Origin: Brevibacillus panacihumi W25
GTDB taxonomy: Bacteria; Bacillota; Bacilli; Brevibacillales; Brevibacillaceae
Assembly (NCBI RefSeq): GCF_000503775.1
Contig: NZ_KI629785.1
Span: forward strand, 991,501 to 1,055,500
Reading direction: 5' to 3'
Length of the DNA: 64,000 bases
A program made the position numbers and the translations under genes. Below, in pieces: positions 28,344 to 62,780 of this stretch. The first letter of the stretch is position 1. Every line of letters starts with the position of its first letter. A model generated the notes under the pieces. The model saw only the letters and a program-made list of their open reading frames with translations. It did no database searches and had not been told where the DNA came from.

Positions 28344-28568
28344 GGGTTGGAGGTATTCGGACTGAACAGGCGGGGTGGGGTCTTCACTGGTGGCCTCTCT
28401 GGCCGCCTCCACTCCAAAGGCGGAACCGCGGCCAAAAGCAGCCCACTTCCAAGAAGTAAATCAGGGTTGGCCGCTGAATGCGTGTTCCGCCTTTTCCATA
28501 GCGTCTGGGTCAAGATCCCAAATGCCTCTCGCTTATTTCCTTTTTTCCTCGACCAGCTGGTTCAATCC
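28344..28568 (+). repeat. Dispersed structured repeat, copy 1
   Basis: About 225 bp closely related to 62312-62572. Shared blocks include GGGTTGG at the left end, AAGGCGGAACCGCGGCCAAA, AGCAGCC, AGGGTTGGCC, CTGGGTCAAGATCCCA and CCTCGACCAGCT near the right end. Closing stem: TGGGGTCTT (28376-28384) with AAGATCCCA (28512-28520), one G-U pair on the plus-strand RNA. An inner hairpin ACTTC-CAA-GAAGT and an outer stem GGACTGAAC / GTTCAATCC (28359-28367 with 28560-28568, one mismatch) are also visible; seven T follow shortly after. Short reading frames across it show amino-acid similarity between copies only because the DNA is similar. It lies between the end of the sftA gene and the start of the 27869 gene. 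Confidence 0.85.
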
Positions 28569-28577
28569 TCCATTTTT

Positions 28578-31304
28578 TTACACCAAACTCGAACCTTCCG
28601 CTACCGCTTGCGCGTCTTCAAGCGTGATCAGGACTGCCCTCGCCTTGCCGCCGCTTTGGCCGGCGACATAGCCGTCTGCTTCCATCATTTCGATCAGACG
28701 GGCCGCACGGTTGTACCCCACCCGGAATCTGCGCTGCAGGCCGGAAGCGGAAGCCTGTCCCTGCTCCGCGACGAAGACGAGCGCTTCCAGGTAGAGGGGA
28801 TCGTCTCCGGCGTCAAAGGATTGCACCTGTTGCTCCAGATCTTCTTTGCTGAATAGGTAGGAAGGTTTTCTCTGCTTCTTGATGATGTGCGTGATTCGTT
28901 CAATCTCGTCGTCCGAGACGAAATTCCCCTGCAGCCGAAGCGGCGTGGTTCCGCTCTCCAAAAAGAGCATGTCCCCTCTGCCGAGCAATCGCTCCGCTCC
29001 GGACTGATCGAGGATCGTCCGAGAGTCGACTTGGGAAAACACCGCAAAGGCAAGGCGAGTCGGCACGTTCGCCTTGATGTTGCCTGTAATCACATCGACG
29101 GATGGTCGCTGTGTCGCCAGCAGCAGATGGATGCCGCATGCCCTTGCCTTCTGGGCGATCCGAATGATGCAGTCCTCCACATCCTGCGGGGAGACCATCA
29201 TCAGATCGGCCAATTCGTCGATCACGATGACGATATAGGGCAAATGATCATCTGTCGTCTGATTGTAGCGTTCAATGTCGCGTACCCCCGCATCCACGAA
29301 CAGGGCGTAACGCTTCTCCATTTCCTCGACTGCCCATTTCAGCGCGGCCGTCGCTTGCTTGGCTTCTGTGACGACTGGTGTCACCAGATGCGGCAAGTGG
29401 TTGTACGGAGCCAGCTCTACCATTTTAGGATCGATCAGCAGCAGCCTCACTTGTTCGGGCGTCGCCTTGTACAACAGACTGACGATGATCGAATTGATGC
29501 AGACGCTCTTACCGGAACCGGTGGCACCAGCGATCAGTCCGTGCGGCATCTTTTTGATGTCCGCAATAATCGGAGCCCCTCCGATATCCATCCCCAGAGC
29601 GACTGCCAATGCCGAAGGATGCTGTTGAAATTCCGCGGACCCGATGATTTTCTCAATCAGCACCGGCTGGCTGGACAGATTCGGGACCTCGATCCCTATC
29701 GCATTGCGACCCGGAATCGGCGCTTCGATCCGAATGTCCTTGGCAGCCAGATTCAGCTTGATGTCATCGATCAGGCTGGTAATTTTGTTTACTTTGACGC
29801 CTGGAGCTGGCTGCAGCTCAAATCTCGTTACAGACGGACCTTTCACGATCCCGACCACCTGCGCGCTGACATTGAAGTTCGCAAGCGTCTCCTCCAGCAG
29901 CAGCTTTTGCAATTGTGTATGCTCGTCATCATCCCCCGCAACCTCCGGGCTTGGATTGAGCAAATCCAGCGACGGCAACTGATAGGAAGGCACAGCTTGC
30001 AGGTCGTCAGGCTGCTTTTGTTCCGTCGGCTTTTGCACTGGTTCAATGCGCAATGGCTCGGTATGAACAAGCGGAGCTGCGTAAGTTACGTTGACTGGCG
30101 TTGCCGCTGTATCGTCCTGTTCTTCCTCTACAGTCGTGAGTGGACTGAATTCCGCACGTTCCAGGAGGCGAGCTATCTCGGGACTCTGCCCAGCCTCCAT
30201 AGCGGCTTTCTCGAAGTCCACCTTCTCTTCCCCCTGCTCCATATCACTTTCTATGAAAACGATGCTCTCGTCTTCCCCTGCTACATCGTCTTCCTCTTGA
30301 TCTGGCGAAATCTCGCTTTCAAGGAACTCCACCACTCCGCTTGATGTATCCGGAATCTGTGGTTCCTCGATCACAGTTTCTGCTTCGATTTCAGTTTCTG
30401 TTTCGATTTCAGATTCTGTTTCGTTTTCTACCTCGGCTACTGCTTCCGTCTCTATTACATGATCTGCTTTTGCTTCGGATGATTCATGCTGTGGAGCTTC
30501 TGGCCAGGCTGTCTCCTCTTCGCTTTCCTCTTCCTCGACTGGAGGCTGCTGTTTCCTTGCAAATAGAAACACCGGCTCGATTGAGGTATCTGCCTCTTTC
30601 TCCACCGTAGCCTCGCTTGCGGCCGCTGCTTCGTCAGCAGCTGTCTCCTCGGCAGGCTCGTCTGCCATTTCCTGCGGCTCATTTTCCGTTTTTCCTGCCA
30701 TCTGCATCTGCTGCCACAGCTTTAATTGGTTTAGCTGCTCTTCCTGCTCCTGGAGCGGGTAGACAATGCCCGCCGTTGTATGAATGCGATGCTCCATCTC
30801 CATCGTGGCCGGCGTAATTTTTCCGTATACAGGAGAGACAATATCCGAAGGCTGATAGGCTCTTTTTTCGCTTCCTGCCGTCTTCTGATTCCCCGGCTTC
30901 GTAGAAGCTCCCCGGTGATCCACCTGTTGTTTTTTGACTGGCAAGGTCTTCTCCTCCGGCTGCTCCACTGCTTTTGCAGCCCTCCGGTTGGGCAACCTCT
31001 CACGTGAAGAAGACTGGTTCTCCTGGTTTCCTTCAAGAAGATCCGGATCCAGACCCATCTCCTTCTCTATTCTTCTGCGCTCCGGATAGTGGTCTGGGAC
31101 GACCGGAAACCGGAACTGCCGCTGCTTGTCCGTTCTGAACTCGTCATGTTCCCGACTGCTTTCACGCTCTCTCGGGTAGATGCTTTTCGTTTTTGCCTGG
31201 AGCTGACGGGATTTCGTATGGTTGGGTGGATGCGTCTCATCCTCATCCACTTCCCTCTCTTCCCCCCGAAACACATTCATCAGCTTTTGGAACCACGACC
31301 ACAT
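28578..31304 (-). CDS. sftA: Soluble FtsK/SpoIIIE-type DNA translocase (SftA-like)
   Basis: A 908-residue hexameric dsDNA motor that clears chromosome DNA from the division septum. No N-terminal membrane helices are present, unlike FtsK/SpoIIIE; instead the first 430 residues are charged and low-complexity with glutamate-rich repeats (ETEIEAETVIEE), which fits B. subtilis SftA/YtpS. The motor follows: beta-type segment FNVSAQVVGIVKGPSVTRFELQPAPG, Walker A GATGSGKS, Walker B VIVIDELADLMM, and a C-terminal gamma winged helix (RRFRVGYNRAARLIEMME) for KOPS-like recognition. RBS before the ATG is weak (AAGG). Monocistronic as far as can be seen. Confidence 0.9.
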   Translation of the reverse strand: MWSWFQKLMNVFRGEEREVDEDETHPPNHTKSRQLQAKTKSIYPRERESSREHDEFRTDKQRQFRFPVVPDHYPERRRIEKEMGLDPDLLEGNQENQSSSRERLPNRRAAKAVEQPEEKTLPVKKQQVDHRGASTKPGNQKTAGSEKRAYQPSDIVSPVYGKITPATMEMEHRIHTTAGIVYPLQEQEEQLNQLKLWQQMQMAGKTENEPQEMADEPAEETAADEAAAASEATVEKEADTSIEPVFLFARKQQPPVEEEESEEETAWPEAPQHESSEAKADHVIETEAVAEVENETESEIETETEIEAETVIEEPQIPDTSSGVVEFLESEISPDQEEDDVAGEDESIVFIESDMEQGEEKVDFEKAAMEAGQSPEIARLLERAEFSPLTTVEEEQDDTAATPVNVTYAAPLVHTEPLRIEPVQKPTEQKQPDDLQAVPSYQLPSLDLLNPSPEVAGDDDEHTQLQKLLLEETLANFNVSAQVVGIVKGPSVTRFELQPAPGVKVNKITSLIDDIKLNLAAKDIRIEAPIPGRNAIGIEVPNLSSQPVLIEKIIGSAEFQQHPSALAVALGMDIGGAPIIADIKKMPHGLIAGATGSGKSVCINSIIVSLLYKATPEQVRLLLIDPKMVELAPYNHLPHLVTPVVTEAKQATAALKWAVEEMEKRYALFVDAGVRDIERYNQTTDDHLPYIVIVIDELADLMMVSPQDVEDCIIRIAQKARACGIHLLLATQRPSVDVITGNIKANVPTRLAFAVFSQVDSRTILDQSGAERLLGRGDMLFLESGTTPLRLQGNFVSDDEIERITHIIKKQRKPSYLFSKEDLEQQVQSFDAGDDPLYLEALVFVAEQGQASASGLQRRFRVGYNRAARLIEMMEADGYVAGQSGGKARAVLITLEDAQAVAEGSSLV

Positions 31305-61373: not shown

Positions 61374-62183
61374 TTATTGTGGATTCGGCTCCTGGGCAAA
61401 CAGCTCTTTCTTGGTGTCAGCATCAAGGAAGACGACCGTGGTATACGGAGGCAGCTCTGCCTTTGCCACAATTACGGGATAGGTAATGACTTGCGGATAC
61501 ATGCGATCCGGCTCTGGGGAAGTCTGCTTGACGTACACGATGAGCTGTTCCCAGGTCCATTGGGTAGCAGTCACCTTCAAGCCATAACCCGGATTCGGGG
61601 ATTCTCCCCGAGCAATCACGAATAAATCGCCTTGCTGATGAATGCCACGGGTTTTCTTGACCGATTCCACAAATTTCTGTTCTTCGGCACTCAGTTGCTC
61701 CGTATTCATCAGTGTCAGTCCGCCCTCTTTGAGCGTCGTAGTGATCTGAACTTGATGCTCCTGTTCGTTCCAAGCGATCTCATGACCGGCCTGTTCCACG
61801 ATCCATCGCAGCGGCAGGTAGATGTCCTGCCCTTGTACGATTGCTTGCTCCCCCTGCTCTTGCCATTCGCCGTTTACCGCGACTTTTCCGGTGTCCCATT
61901 GAAAGCCAAGCGAACGACTGTCCCCGATCTGCAGGGTGCCAGTTTTCCCGTCCAATACCCACTCGGCTTGCAAAATCCTGGCCGCGTCTTGAGCAGTGAT
62001 ATAGGTTTTTTCCTGTATAAGAATCGGTTCCTTCACGAGATGGGTCAACTGACCATTCACCATCAATGATGCAGGTGCTGGGGGGGAAGCGGTGATGTCT
62101 TGTGCGGAGGCTTCCGCTGAAAGAAAGGCGGAGAAACCGATTTGCAAGCCTAGGACAACCGCAACTACACTCTTGCCATACAT
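61374..62183 (-). CDS. Secreted protein with copper-amine-oxidase-like N-terminal and PrcB-like C-terminal domains
   Basis: A 269-residue exported protein. A signal peptide ends near AEASAQ (about residue 27). Residues 38-150 form a copper-amine-oxidase N-terminal-like (stalk) domain: MVNGQLTHLVKEPILIQEKTYI and DIYLPLRWIVEQAGHEIAWNE (partly quoted). The last 100 residues (GYGLKVT, VYVKQTSPEPDRMYPQVITYP) look like the PrcB C-terminal domain, known from protease-complex and Gram-positive surface proteins. AATGGAGG lies 8 nt before the ATG at 62183. Role unknown; wall-associated binding is likely. Confidence 0.86.
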   Translation of the reverse strand: MYGKSVVAVVLGLQIGFSAFLSAEASAQDITASPPAPASLMVNGQLTHLVKEPILIQEKTYITAQDAARILQAEWVLDGKTGTLQIGDSRSLGFQWDTGKVAVNGEWQEQGEQAIVQGQDIYLPLRWIVEQAGHEIAWNEQEHQVQITTTLKEGGLTLMNTEQLSAEEQKFVESVKKTRGIHQQGDLFVIARGESPNPGYGLKVTATQWTWEQLIVYVKQTSPEPDRMYPQVITYPVIVAKAELPPYTTVVFLDADTKKELFAQEPNPQ

Positions 62184-62311
62184 AACGCCAACCTCCATTC
62201 ATTCTGATCCTCTTTGCCAGTGCTATCCTGTAAGACTCGTGTCGGGATCGATTCGTTTCATATACTCTACCCTCATTTTACGCTGGTAAAACGTGACAGA
62301 AGTACCATCTT

Positions 62312-62572
62312 GGGTTGGTGGTTGTCGGGCTGCAGTGCTGGGAAGGAAAAAGGAGAAAATGCTCCAGGCGGGTTGGGATCTTCATTGGGGCAGTACTGGC
62401 CGGCTCCATTCCAAAAGGCGGAACCGCGGCCAAAAGCAGCCGACTTCGAAGAAGTGGTTCAGGGTTGGCCACTAAGGACGTGTTCCCCCTTTTTCCATTG
62501 CGCCTGGGTCAAGATCCCAAATGCCTTCGCTTTTTTCTCCTTTTTCCTCGACCAGCTTATTCAAGTCCCCGT
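62312..62572 (+). repeat. Dispersed structured repeat, copy 2
   Basis: Related to 28344-28568 over nearly its full length, with about 30 extra bases near the left end. Closing stem TTGGGATCTT / AAGATCCCAA (62373-62382 with 62511-62520) is perfect here. The extra bases supply a longer outer stem: GCTGG (62337-62341) with CCAGC (62552-62556), and AGGAAAAAGGAGAAAA (62344-62359) with its exact complement at 62533-62548. The inner hairpin ACTTC-GAA-GAAGT has the same stem as in copy 1 but a changed loop. No protein gene is evident inside. Confidence 0.85.
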
Positions 62573-62780
62573 TCCTACAATTGTGGGTTTCTCTTGGAGC
62601 AAAGAAAAAACATCATAATACTAGACAACCCAATAAAACATGTAATTTCATGTACATCATTAACGTGTAGCTTGCAAATAAAAAGCAATAGCATCAGGAA
62701 TTTACGATTAGTTACAGAGTACTTAATCTGGTACATAATTTTTCTCACATATTAACCTTTTTTAGTCGCTTTATGTCGGA
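62573..62780. other. AT-rich intergenic stretch
   Basis: About 200 bp with a sharp drop in GC compared with the region to the left. No gene, terminator or repeat recognised; it marks the transition to the recombinase remnant. Confidence 0.5.

What the first reader, a model, noticed from the sequence alone, without database searches (positions are those of the whole stretch)
28344..28568. Dispersed 225-260 bp repeat with conserved RNA-like folding, two copies 34 kb apart
Copies at 28344-28568 and 62312-62572 share long identical blocks in non-coding DNA. Their closing stem differs by one base but stays paired: TTGGGATCTT/AAGATCCCAA in copy 2, TGGGGTCTT/AAGATCCCA in copy 1. The change gives G-U only in plus-orientation RNA; on the other strand it would be a C-A mismatch. 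An inner hairpin keeps its stem (ACTTC/GAAGT) while its loop changes. This is the pattern expected for a transcribed structured RNA or a fold-back mobile repeat. I know of no named family that it matches.
Basis: partly seen in the sequence, partly recalled or inferred. Interest (0 to 1): 0.75.

Follow-up and report, generated by a model that had tools for sequence, protein, structure and literature searches.

The report
Brevibacillus fork-oriented dispersed DNA palindromes
The two repeats belong to a family of roughly 200-base hairpin-shaped DNA repeats, dozens in most Brevibacillus genomes searched, whose two arms change together and which, in several chromosomes checked, nearly all point the same way relative to DNA copying; they look like DNA fold-back elements and landing pads for other mobile DNA rather than an RNA gene.

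Summary
The repeat has 59 copies in the window's genome; a covariance model matches 24 of 26 genomes of the genus, which is Brevibacillus. Rfam has no match. The fold is supported: 28 of 45 pairs change on both sides. The strand argument fails: in 207 distinct copies, pairs found on both strands hold 74 G-U and 79 A-C cells; a SAM riboswitch control gives 9 and 0. Families C and D behave alike. Constraint seems to act on DNA as a palindrome. Orientation follows replication: 40 of 40 copies in G006, 24 of 25 in G012, 14 of 15 in G017, weaker in G001. A group II intron occupies one site in 10 of 59 copies and an IS110 end one arm site in 7 of 59. No target duplication, no clean empty site and no dependence on Y1 transposase were found. 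Best reading: a non-coding fold-back DNA element that spread on the lagging-strand template. How it moves is unknown.

The parts
28349..28577 (+). Copy 1 of the repeat (family A); left outer arm lost
   Evidence: R1 155.4 bits at 28349-28550; profile positions 23-236
62316..62574 (+). Copy 2 of the repeat (family A), complete; core 62343-62549
   Evidence: R1 201.4 bits; profile 2-234; left end judged from column conservation
62343..62359 (+). Copy 2, outer arm, purine-rich left side
62531..62549 (+). Copy 2, outer arm, pyrimidine-rich right side
62373..62382 (+).
   Evidence: helix 3 (8 of 11 pairs change on both sides)
62511..62520 (+).
62414..62424 (+). Copy 2, inner stem (AAAGGCGGAAC), left side
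   Evidence: helix 6
62482..62494 (+). Copy 2, inner stem, right side
   Evidence: helix 6
62426..62431 (+). Copy 2, apical stem GCGGCC, left side
   Evidence: helix 7
62467..62472 (+). Copy 2, apical stem, right side (one mismatch in this copy)
   Evidence: helix 7
62443..62455 (+). Copy 2, small inner hairpin ACTTC..GAAGT
28376..28384 (+). Copy 1, closing stem left side, with the G of the G-U pair
28512..28520 (+). Copy 1, closing stem right side
28445..28457 (+). Copy 1, small inner hairpin ACTTC..GAAGT
62465..62466 (-). Place in copy 2 that corresponds to the group II intron insertion site (unoccupied here; occupied in 10 of 59 copies)
   Evidence: junction placed by eye
62349..62350 (+). 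Approximate place in copy 2 that corresponds to the IS110 insertion site in the outer arm (unoccupied here; IS end present in 7 of 59 copies)
   Evidence: exact base ambiguous within a run of A

Best explanation
It is a non-coding fold-back DNA element (core 206 bases), one of at least three related palindromic families in Brevibacillus (A, C and D; the B palindrome beside A in G006 resembles D). Shown: many copies, mostly between predicted genes, arms that change together by Watson-Crick pairs with no strand preference, strong orientation with replication in several genomes, and fixed insertion sites for a group II intron and an IS110 element. Inferred: the element folds as a DNA hairpin or cruciform, most readily on the lagging-strand template. 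There its arms are kept complementary by hairpin template switching, possibly helped by selection for the folded DNA. New copies entered in a fixed direction relative to the fork through a trans-acting single-strand recombinase or retrotransposition activity not yet identified. The intron and the IS exploit it as a harmless, plentiful target.
For: 59 copies in the genome, 24 of 26 genus genomes. 28 of 45 pairs change on both sides and 94.7% of cells pair against 38.9-58.8% when the partner is slid. Strand-neutral departures: 74 G-U, 79 A-C, 4705 Watson-Crick in 207 copies (two-sided p 0.75); SAM riboswitch control 9 G-U, 0 A-C. Family C: 1147 Watson-Crick, 13 G-U, 7 A-C; family D: 945, 2 and 5. 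Own-genome rows: 46 double changes against 19.7 expected if the sides were independent. Fork polarity: G006 40 of 40 copies (27 loci), G012 24 of 25, G017 14 of 15, dnaA near base 1 in all three; on G000 contig C5, which carries dnaA at 428947, 5 of 6 copies. Only 33 of 45 predicted window genes lie on the favoured strand. At convergent gene pairs, where gene direction gives no cue, 8 of 8 such loci among the 20 G006 loci examined follow the fork. Insertions: intron end in 10 of 59, IS110 end in 7 of 59, each at one site and facing one way.
Against: Fork polarity is not universal: in G001 6 of 33 matches lie the other way (4 of about 16 loci), G017 has one exception, G021 one copy close to the presumed terminus, and for most of G000 fork direction was only inferred from the majority on each contig (55 of 59 agree). 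In exceptions the neighbouring gene still ends toward the element in 6 of 9, so gene direction may matter too. Loop motifs look conserved across families (by eye), which template switching alone would not explain. A few pairs that only the plus-strand fold contains are mostly G-U (columns 30/192, 44/179, 46/177 of A1), which could hint at an RNA. No target duplication, no clean empty site and no mobilising gene, so active mobility is not shown. No expression data were available.
Confidence: 0.55

Rival explanations
1. A transcribed structured RNA (from either strand) that is selected as RNA; arms covary because the RNA must fold.
For: Strong covariation; loop motifs that look conserved across families (by eye); a few plus-only pairs are mostly G-U; the minus strand usually runs in the same sense as the gene that ends beside the element (right-hand gene on - in 53 of 56 called, and 26 of 30), so read-through is plausible. 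Template switching can also keep true RNA hairpins paired (PMC8794818, passages read).
Against: G-U and A-C departures are equal over strand-shared pairs, unlike the SAM control; families C and D likewise. No Rfam match. Fork polarity in G006, G012 and G017 is stricter than gene polarity in the window.
Confidence: 0.2
2. A REPIN/RAYT-like or IS200/IS605-derived element moved by a Y1 (HUH) transposase on lagging-strand single-stranded DNA.
For: Hairpins, fork polarity, no target duplication; convergent pairs of elements occur. Lagging-strand targeting by IS608 and ISDra2 and the proposed role of TnpAREP in REP spread: PMC6006769 abstract.
Against: Y1_Tnp found in 16 of 26 genomes only; G012, G013, G014 and G041 have 60 to 77 model matches and no Y1 match. 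In G000 only partial Y1 matches. No Y1 gene among the 25 largest neighbour-gene clusters as I read them. Modules are about 200 bp, REPs 20-40 bp (PMC3733652 abstract start in listing). A past Y1 role is not excluded.
Confidence: 0.12
3. A functional chromosomal site (for example a polar site read by replication or segregation proteins, or a single-strand priming hairpin), kept by selection in one orientation.
For: Near-absolute fork polarity in G006 and G012, and no family A copy of 140 bits or more in the two deciles around mid-chromosome of either (0 of 27 G006 loci); a loop motif shared by families A, C and D (by eye).
Against: 2 of 26 genus genomes have no match and one has a single weak match, so it is dispensable; copy number varies greatly; tandem arrays occur; 20 of 28 of the weak matches of 50-72 bits point the opposite way.
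Confidence: 0.1
4. An integron attC-like folded recombination site.
For: Both attC sites and this element are imperfect palindromes associated with group II introns; the integron case is in PMC7923331 (abstract).
Against: Copies are scattered, not in cassette arrays; no integrase among the 25 largest neighbour-gene clusters as I read them; the attC core triplets (recalled, not from a call) are not seen at the expected places. No search for integrases was made.
Confidence: 0.03

Closest known systems
REP / REPIN sequences with RAYT transposases
   Same: Many dispersed extragenic palindromes; used as fixed-position targets by IS110-family elements (ISPa11 6/6, ISPpu9 7/7, ISPpu10 7/7: PMC1525189, passages read); possible lagging-strand link (PMC6006769 abstract).
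   Different: About five to ten times longer, seven stacked helices, strong fork polarity in several genomes, no Y1 dependence.
ERIC-type RU-1 and RU-2 repeats of enterobacteria
   Same: 127-bp and 168-bp intergenic repeats described as MITE-like (PMC2759123, abstract start in search listing); the identity of RU-1 with ERIC is recalled.
   Different: Unrelated host; not compared by sequence. Arm-by-arm covariation and fork polarity are the features measured here.
bcr1 and other bcr repeats of the Bacillus cereus group
   Same: Dispersed roughly 150-bp folded repeats in a Bacilli genus (recalled; only search listings seen).
   Different: Not compared by sequence here.
IS608/ISDra2 (IS200/IS605) and their non-autonomous derivatives
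   Same: Hairpin ends, insertion on lagging-strand template (PMC6006769 abstract); lack of target duplication is recalled.
   Different: No linked or genus-wide Y1 gene found; the whole element is the hairpin.
Quasipalindromes corrected by template switching
   Same: Arms homogenised in one step, giving double changes without intermediates (PMC8794818, passages read).
   Different: A mutational process rather than an element family; it explains arm identity, not spread or polarity.

Membership tests
REP/REPIN with RAYT | Short (20-40 bp) palindromes | tested here: not met
   Core 206 bases
REP/REPIN with RAYT | Y1 (RAYT) transposase in the genome, flanked by the repeats | tested here: not met
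   No Y1 match in G012, G013, G014, G041 despite 60 to 77 matches each; none among the 25 largest neighbour-gene clusters
DDE-type MITE | Target-site duplications | tested here: not met
   Same-copy shared words no longer than permuted ones in 43 of 59 copies; old copies may have lost them
DDE-type MITE | Terminal inverted repeats matching an autonomous transposon | tested here: inconclusive
Structured RNA family (Rfam) | Match to a curated covariance model | tested here: not met
   loci with B, C and D palindromes have no match, only the intron does
Structured RNA family | Strand-specific wobble pairs | tested here: not met
   74 G-U against 79 A-C over strand-shared pairs; control 9 against 0; three plus-only pairs are mostly G-U
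Structured RNA family | Transcription of the folded strand | not testable with these tools
   No RNA-seq held
IS200/IS605-derived element | Orientation tied to lagging-strand template | tested here: met
   G006, G012, G017; weaker in G001
IS200/IS605-derived element | Related to a Y1 transposase element | tested here: inconclusive
   No Y1 match in 10 of 26 genomes; ends not compared with known IS200/IS605 ends
Integron attC | Integrase and cassette array | tested here: inconclusive
   Copies scattered; no integrase among the 25 largest clusters, no dedicated search

The most novel reading that the evidence does not exclude
Brevibacillus carries a superfamily of large palindromes that are maintained as DNA hairpins, read in one direction relative to the replication fork by a host or mobile-element machinery that recognises the conserved loops (GGGGGATTNACTG and CCAAAG-type motifs, seen by eye), with arms kept complementary by template switching. 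That would be a new class of fork-polar, structure-recognised chromosomal element.
Probability: 0.3. Interest if true: 0.82.

Novelty: new variant of a known kind. Interest (0 to 1): 0.62.

Why it matters
Covariation is usually taken as strong evidence of a structured RNA. Here a large natural data set shows covariation without the wobble signature over the pairs that both strands share, so it can help to separate DNA-level from RNA-level causes. The family also offers dozens of natural hairpins per genome with known fork orientation, useful for testing template switching and lagging-strand insertion, and it shows a Gram-positive counterpart of REP sequences as landing pads for IS110 elements and group II introns.

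Tried and rejected
Plus-strand RNA from the G-U argument: rejected by the strand-shared count and the SAM control. The counts from a plus-strand fold alone do show G-U excess (147 against 27 in 43 copies; 107 against 32 in A1), and from a minus-strand fold alone minus-strand G-U excess (37 against 21; 91 against 21); both lean on fitting, which is why only pairs found on both strands were used. That filter also removes any true strand-specific wobble pair.

T-box resemblance of AAAGGCGGAACCGCGG (recalled motif): no T-box among the Rfam hits up to E 10. Y1/RAYT mobilisation: no dependence. A recurring neighbour gene: of the 25 largest clusters shown, the only mobile-element ones by my reading are the intron RT and the IS110 transposase. 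Target duplications: none detected. Empty sites: ten G006/G012 locus pairs compared; one (L197/L198) lacks A but is rearranged, one pair gave no alignment, others show the element in both, internal deletions or tandem differences. Orientation by neighbouring gene alone: rejected as sole cause because convergent G006 loci follow the fork, although the right-hand gene rule also holds in 6 of 9 fork exceptions. Phage origin: three viral contigs match the pattern; two of them overlap at 100% over 7209 bases and, by my reading of their ORFs, look like prophage next to host DNA. The one named hit not titled Brevibacillus has no model match.

Choice of rows: family D rows were taken only from matches that point opposite to A, so D polarity is not an independent result; family C rows are 20 of the matches of about 75-90 bits. 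Neighbour-gene directions were read for 59 of 59 G000 copies, 20 of 27 G006 loci, 9 of about 16 G001 loci and 1 G017 copy. A1 holds 31 of the sequences available, thinned for redundancy.

Not in print: searched in PubMed Central open papers with the terms; in the listings seen (each capped) no title or abstract start describes this repeat. One search matched 111 papers, 10 listed. Only listings were seen, apart from passages of PMC1525189 and PMC8794818 and the outlines with abstracts of PMC7923331 and PMC6006769.

Full report
WHAT WAS CHECKED. The two stretches are present as described. Both lie between predicted genes: copy 1 between a 133-aa ORF and the end of a gene with FtsK/SpoIIIE, FtsK alpha and gamma domains (28578-31304, minus strand); copy 2 to the right of the start of a gene with Cu_amine_oxidN1 and PrcB_C domains (61374-62198, minus). 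Copy 1 has lost the left outer arm (profile match from position 23), so the complete copy in the window is copy 2.

COPY NUMBER. One BLAST-type search of the genome gave 41 matches (only 40 of 90 candidates were scored). The most conserved 28 bases, with up to 3 mismatches, occur 46 times forward and 13 times reverse, and never in the reversed control. A profile over the loci fetched gives 60 rows, one a 42-base fragment of 15.5 bits; 59 are counted here. In 55 of these 59 no predicted ORF overlaps the element; in 4 one does. The covariance model R1, built from 31 sequences of which 19 come from other species, finds matches in 24 of 26 genus genomes at E up to 0.001; 21 of 26 have 19 to 85 matches (74 in G000), G020 has 4, G008 has 7 weak ones, G009 1 weak one, and G011 and G022 none (at most 93 candidates scored per genome). 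These numbers include weaker relatives and some opposite-strand matches of the same palindrome. In a sample of 250 Bacilli genomes, 15 match at E up to 1e-4: 10 of the genus, 3 of other genera of the family and 2 single weak hits elsewhere (stricter filters).

STRUCTURE. Of 45 pairs, 28 change on both sides; 184 cells are double-changed against a shuffle mean of 63.6 (sd 6.8, 0 of 500 shuffles reach it), and sliding the partner by 1 to 3 columns drops pairing from 94.7% to 38.9-58.8%. The fold is therefore real as a constraint on sequence.

RNA OR DNA. An RNA tolerates G-U but not A-C, and the two swap when the strand is reversed. I folded alignments on both strands and counted only the pairs that both folds contain (letters read on plus). 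70 sequences: 47 G-U, 56 A-C, 2420 Watson-Crick, 44 other. A1: 12, 23, 997, 16. 207 distinct copies: 74, 79, 4705, 72. SAM riboswitches, 27 distinct sequences: 9 G-U, 0 A-C over shared pairs, 33 and 0 over the plus fold. Families C and D, 20 sequences each: 13 G-U and 7 A-C, and 2 and 5, with 1147 and 945 Watson-Crick cells; row L328 of the C set is an outlier and was kept. In family D one arm position takes all four letters, and in the 19 of 20 rows that could be read its complement lies opposite. Among the 48 own-genome rows of the large alignment, double changes number 46 against 19.7 expected from independent sides; one-sided changes are 26 G-U, 20 A-C and 18 other. This pattern fits constraint or copying at the DNA level. 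Template switching inside hairpins is a proposed way to make such one-step double changes, also in true RNA genes (PMC8794818, passages), so it does not by itself exclude an RNA. Against my reading stand three plus-only pairs that are mostly G-U and the fact that the shared-pair filter hides any true strand-specific wobble.

ORIENTATION. In G006 all 40 copies of 140 bits or more (27 loci) are on minus in the first half and on plus in the second half of the chromosome; in G012 24 of 25, the exception lying 41 kb before the coordinate end. dnaA lies near base 1 in both. G017: 14 of 15. G001: exceptions at 1479961, 4960005, 4960290, 5318271, 5318558 and 5902404, that is 6 of 33 matches, 4 of about 16 loci. 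G021: 7 of 8 main copies agree if the terminus is opposite dnaA, the eighth lying about 64 kb from that point; four further matches of 147-158 bits lie about 160 to 3200 bases downstream of main copies in the opposite direction, and one more of 109.8 bits also points against the rule. In G000 copies are on plus in 22 of 22 on contig C4 and 23 of 26 on C1, on minus in 5 of 5 on C6 and 5 of 6 on C5; C5 carries dnaA at 428947 and its copies lie beyond it, so there the direction is as in G006, elsewhere it is inferred from the majority. Gene direction alone does not explain this: 33 of 45 predicted window genes are on minus, and where two genes converge on the element 8 of 8 G006 loci follow the fork (among 20 of 27 loci examined), as do 8 of 8 G000 loci by contig majority, 3 of 5 in G001 and 0 of 1 in G017. 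The gene to the right nearly always ends toward the element (53 of 56 called in G000; 26 of 30 in the second set); the ORF caller is a simple codon model of mine. Matches of 72-95 bits, mostly family C, agree with A in 21 of 22 (G006) and 20 of 22 (G012); of those of 50-72 bits 20 of 28 are opposite, and the family D rows were drawn from matches that are opposite. In the G006 clade an A palindrome and a B palindrome form a unit of about 520 bases that is repeated in tandem.

LANDING PADS. In 10 of 59 copies the element stops at one position and continues into the 3' end of a group II intron, in the same direction each time. The far half of the element was found again in four of the ten, 1946 bases on in three and about 3.3 kb on in the fourth, whose intron carries a further insertion. 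The intron encodes a reverse transcriptase/maturase (TIGR04416, E 5e-130; RVT_1, GIIM) and matches the Rfam families group-II-D1D4-4 and Intron_gpII; its 5' junction was read in one locus (L113). In 7 of 59 copies the left arm joins the right end of an IS110-family element, two of these also holding the intron; both IS junctions were read in three, and the transposase matches NF033542 and PF01548/PF02371. REP sequences as IS110 targets are known (PMC1525189, passages).

WHAT COULD NOT BE SHOWN. No target duplication beyond permuted pairs in 43 of 59 copies. No clean empty site. No mobilising gene: of the 25 largest ORF clusters over 264 loci, the only mobile-element ones by my reading are the intron RT and the IS110 transposase, and Y1 transposases are missing from four genomes rich in copies. 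Expression could not be tested.

CONCLUSION. A genus-wide set of large palindromes with orientation tied to the fork in several genomes and with DNA-type covariation is shown. Propagation on lagging-strand single-stranded DNA and arm correction by template switching are inferred. It works like a REP-type fold-back repeat but fails the tests for REP/RAYT membership, so it is filed as a new variant of the dispersed extragenic palindrome kind.

Noticed in passing
L109:4934-7101 and nine further G000 copies: A closely similar group II intron sits at one site of the repeat in 10 of 59 copies, which looks like a recent burst of site-specific homing into a non-coding repeat.
   Followed up: partly
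L109:3055-4678, L111, L112: An IS110-family element is inserted at the same spot of the outer arm; its bridge RNA could be predicted and compared with the arm.
   Followed up: partly
L175:500-2600: About 520-base units of two different palindromes in convergent order are tandemly repeated four times in one related genome.
   Followed up: partly
L321-L340 and L341-L360: Two further palindrome families (C, D) with nearly perfect arms and loop motifs that resemble those of family A.
   Followed up: partly
L299:540-740: A repeat copy lies beside a holin-like ORF and phage tail-like ORFs (my reading) in a contig filed as viral; by eye a similar upstream flank occurs at G000:C4:1710044.
   Followed up: no
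G006 chromosome: No family A copy of 140 bits or more lies in the two deciles around mid-chromosome, and the first half of the chromosome holds 29 of 40 copies.
   Followed up: no
L113:1017-3202: The intron seems to begin GCGCG by my reading of one junction; the usual GTGYG start is recalled, not from a call.
   Followed up: no
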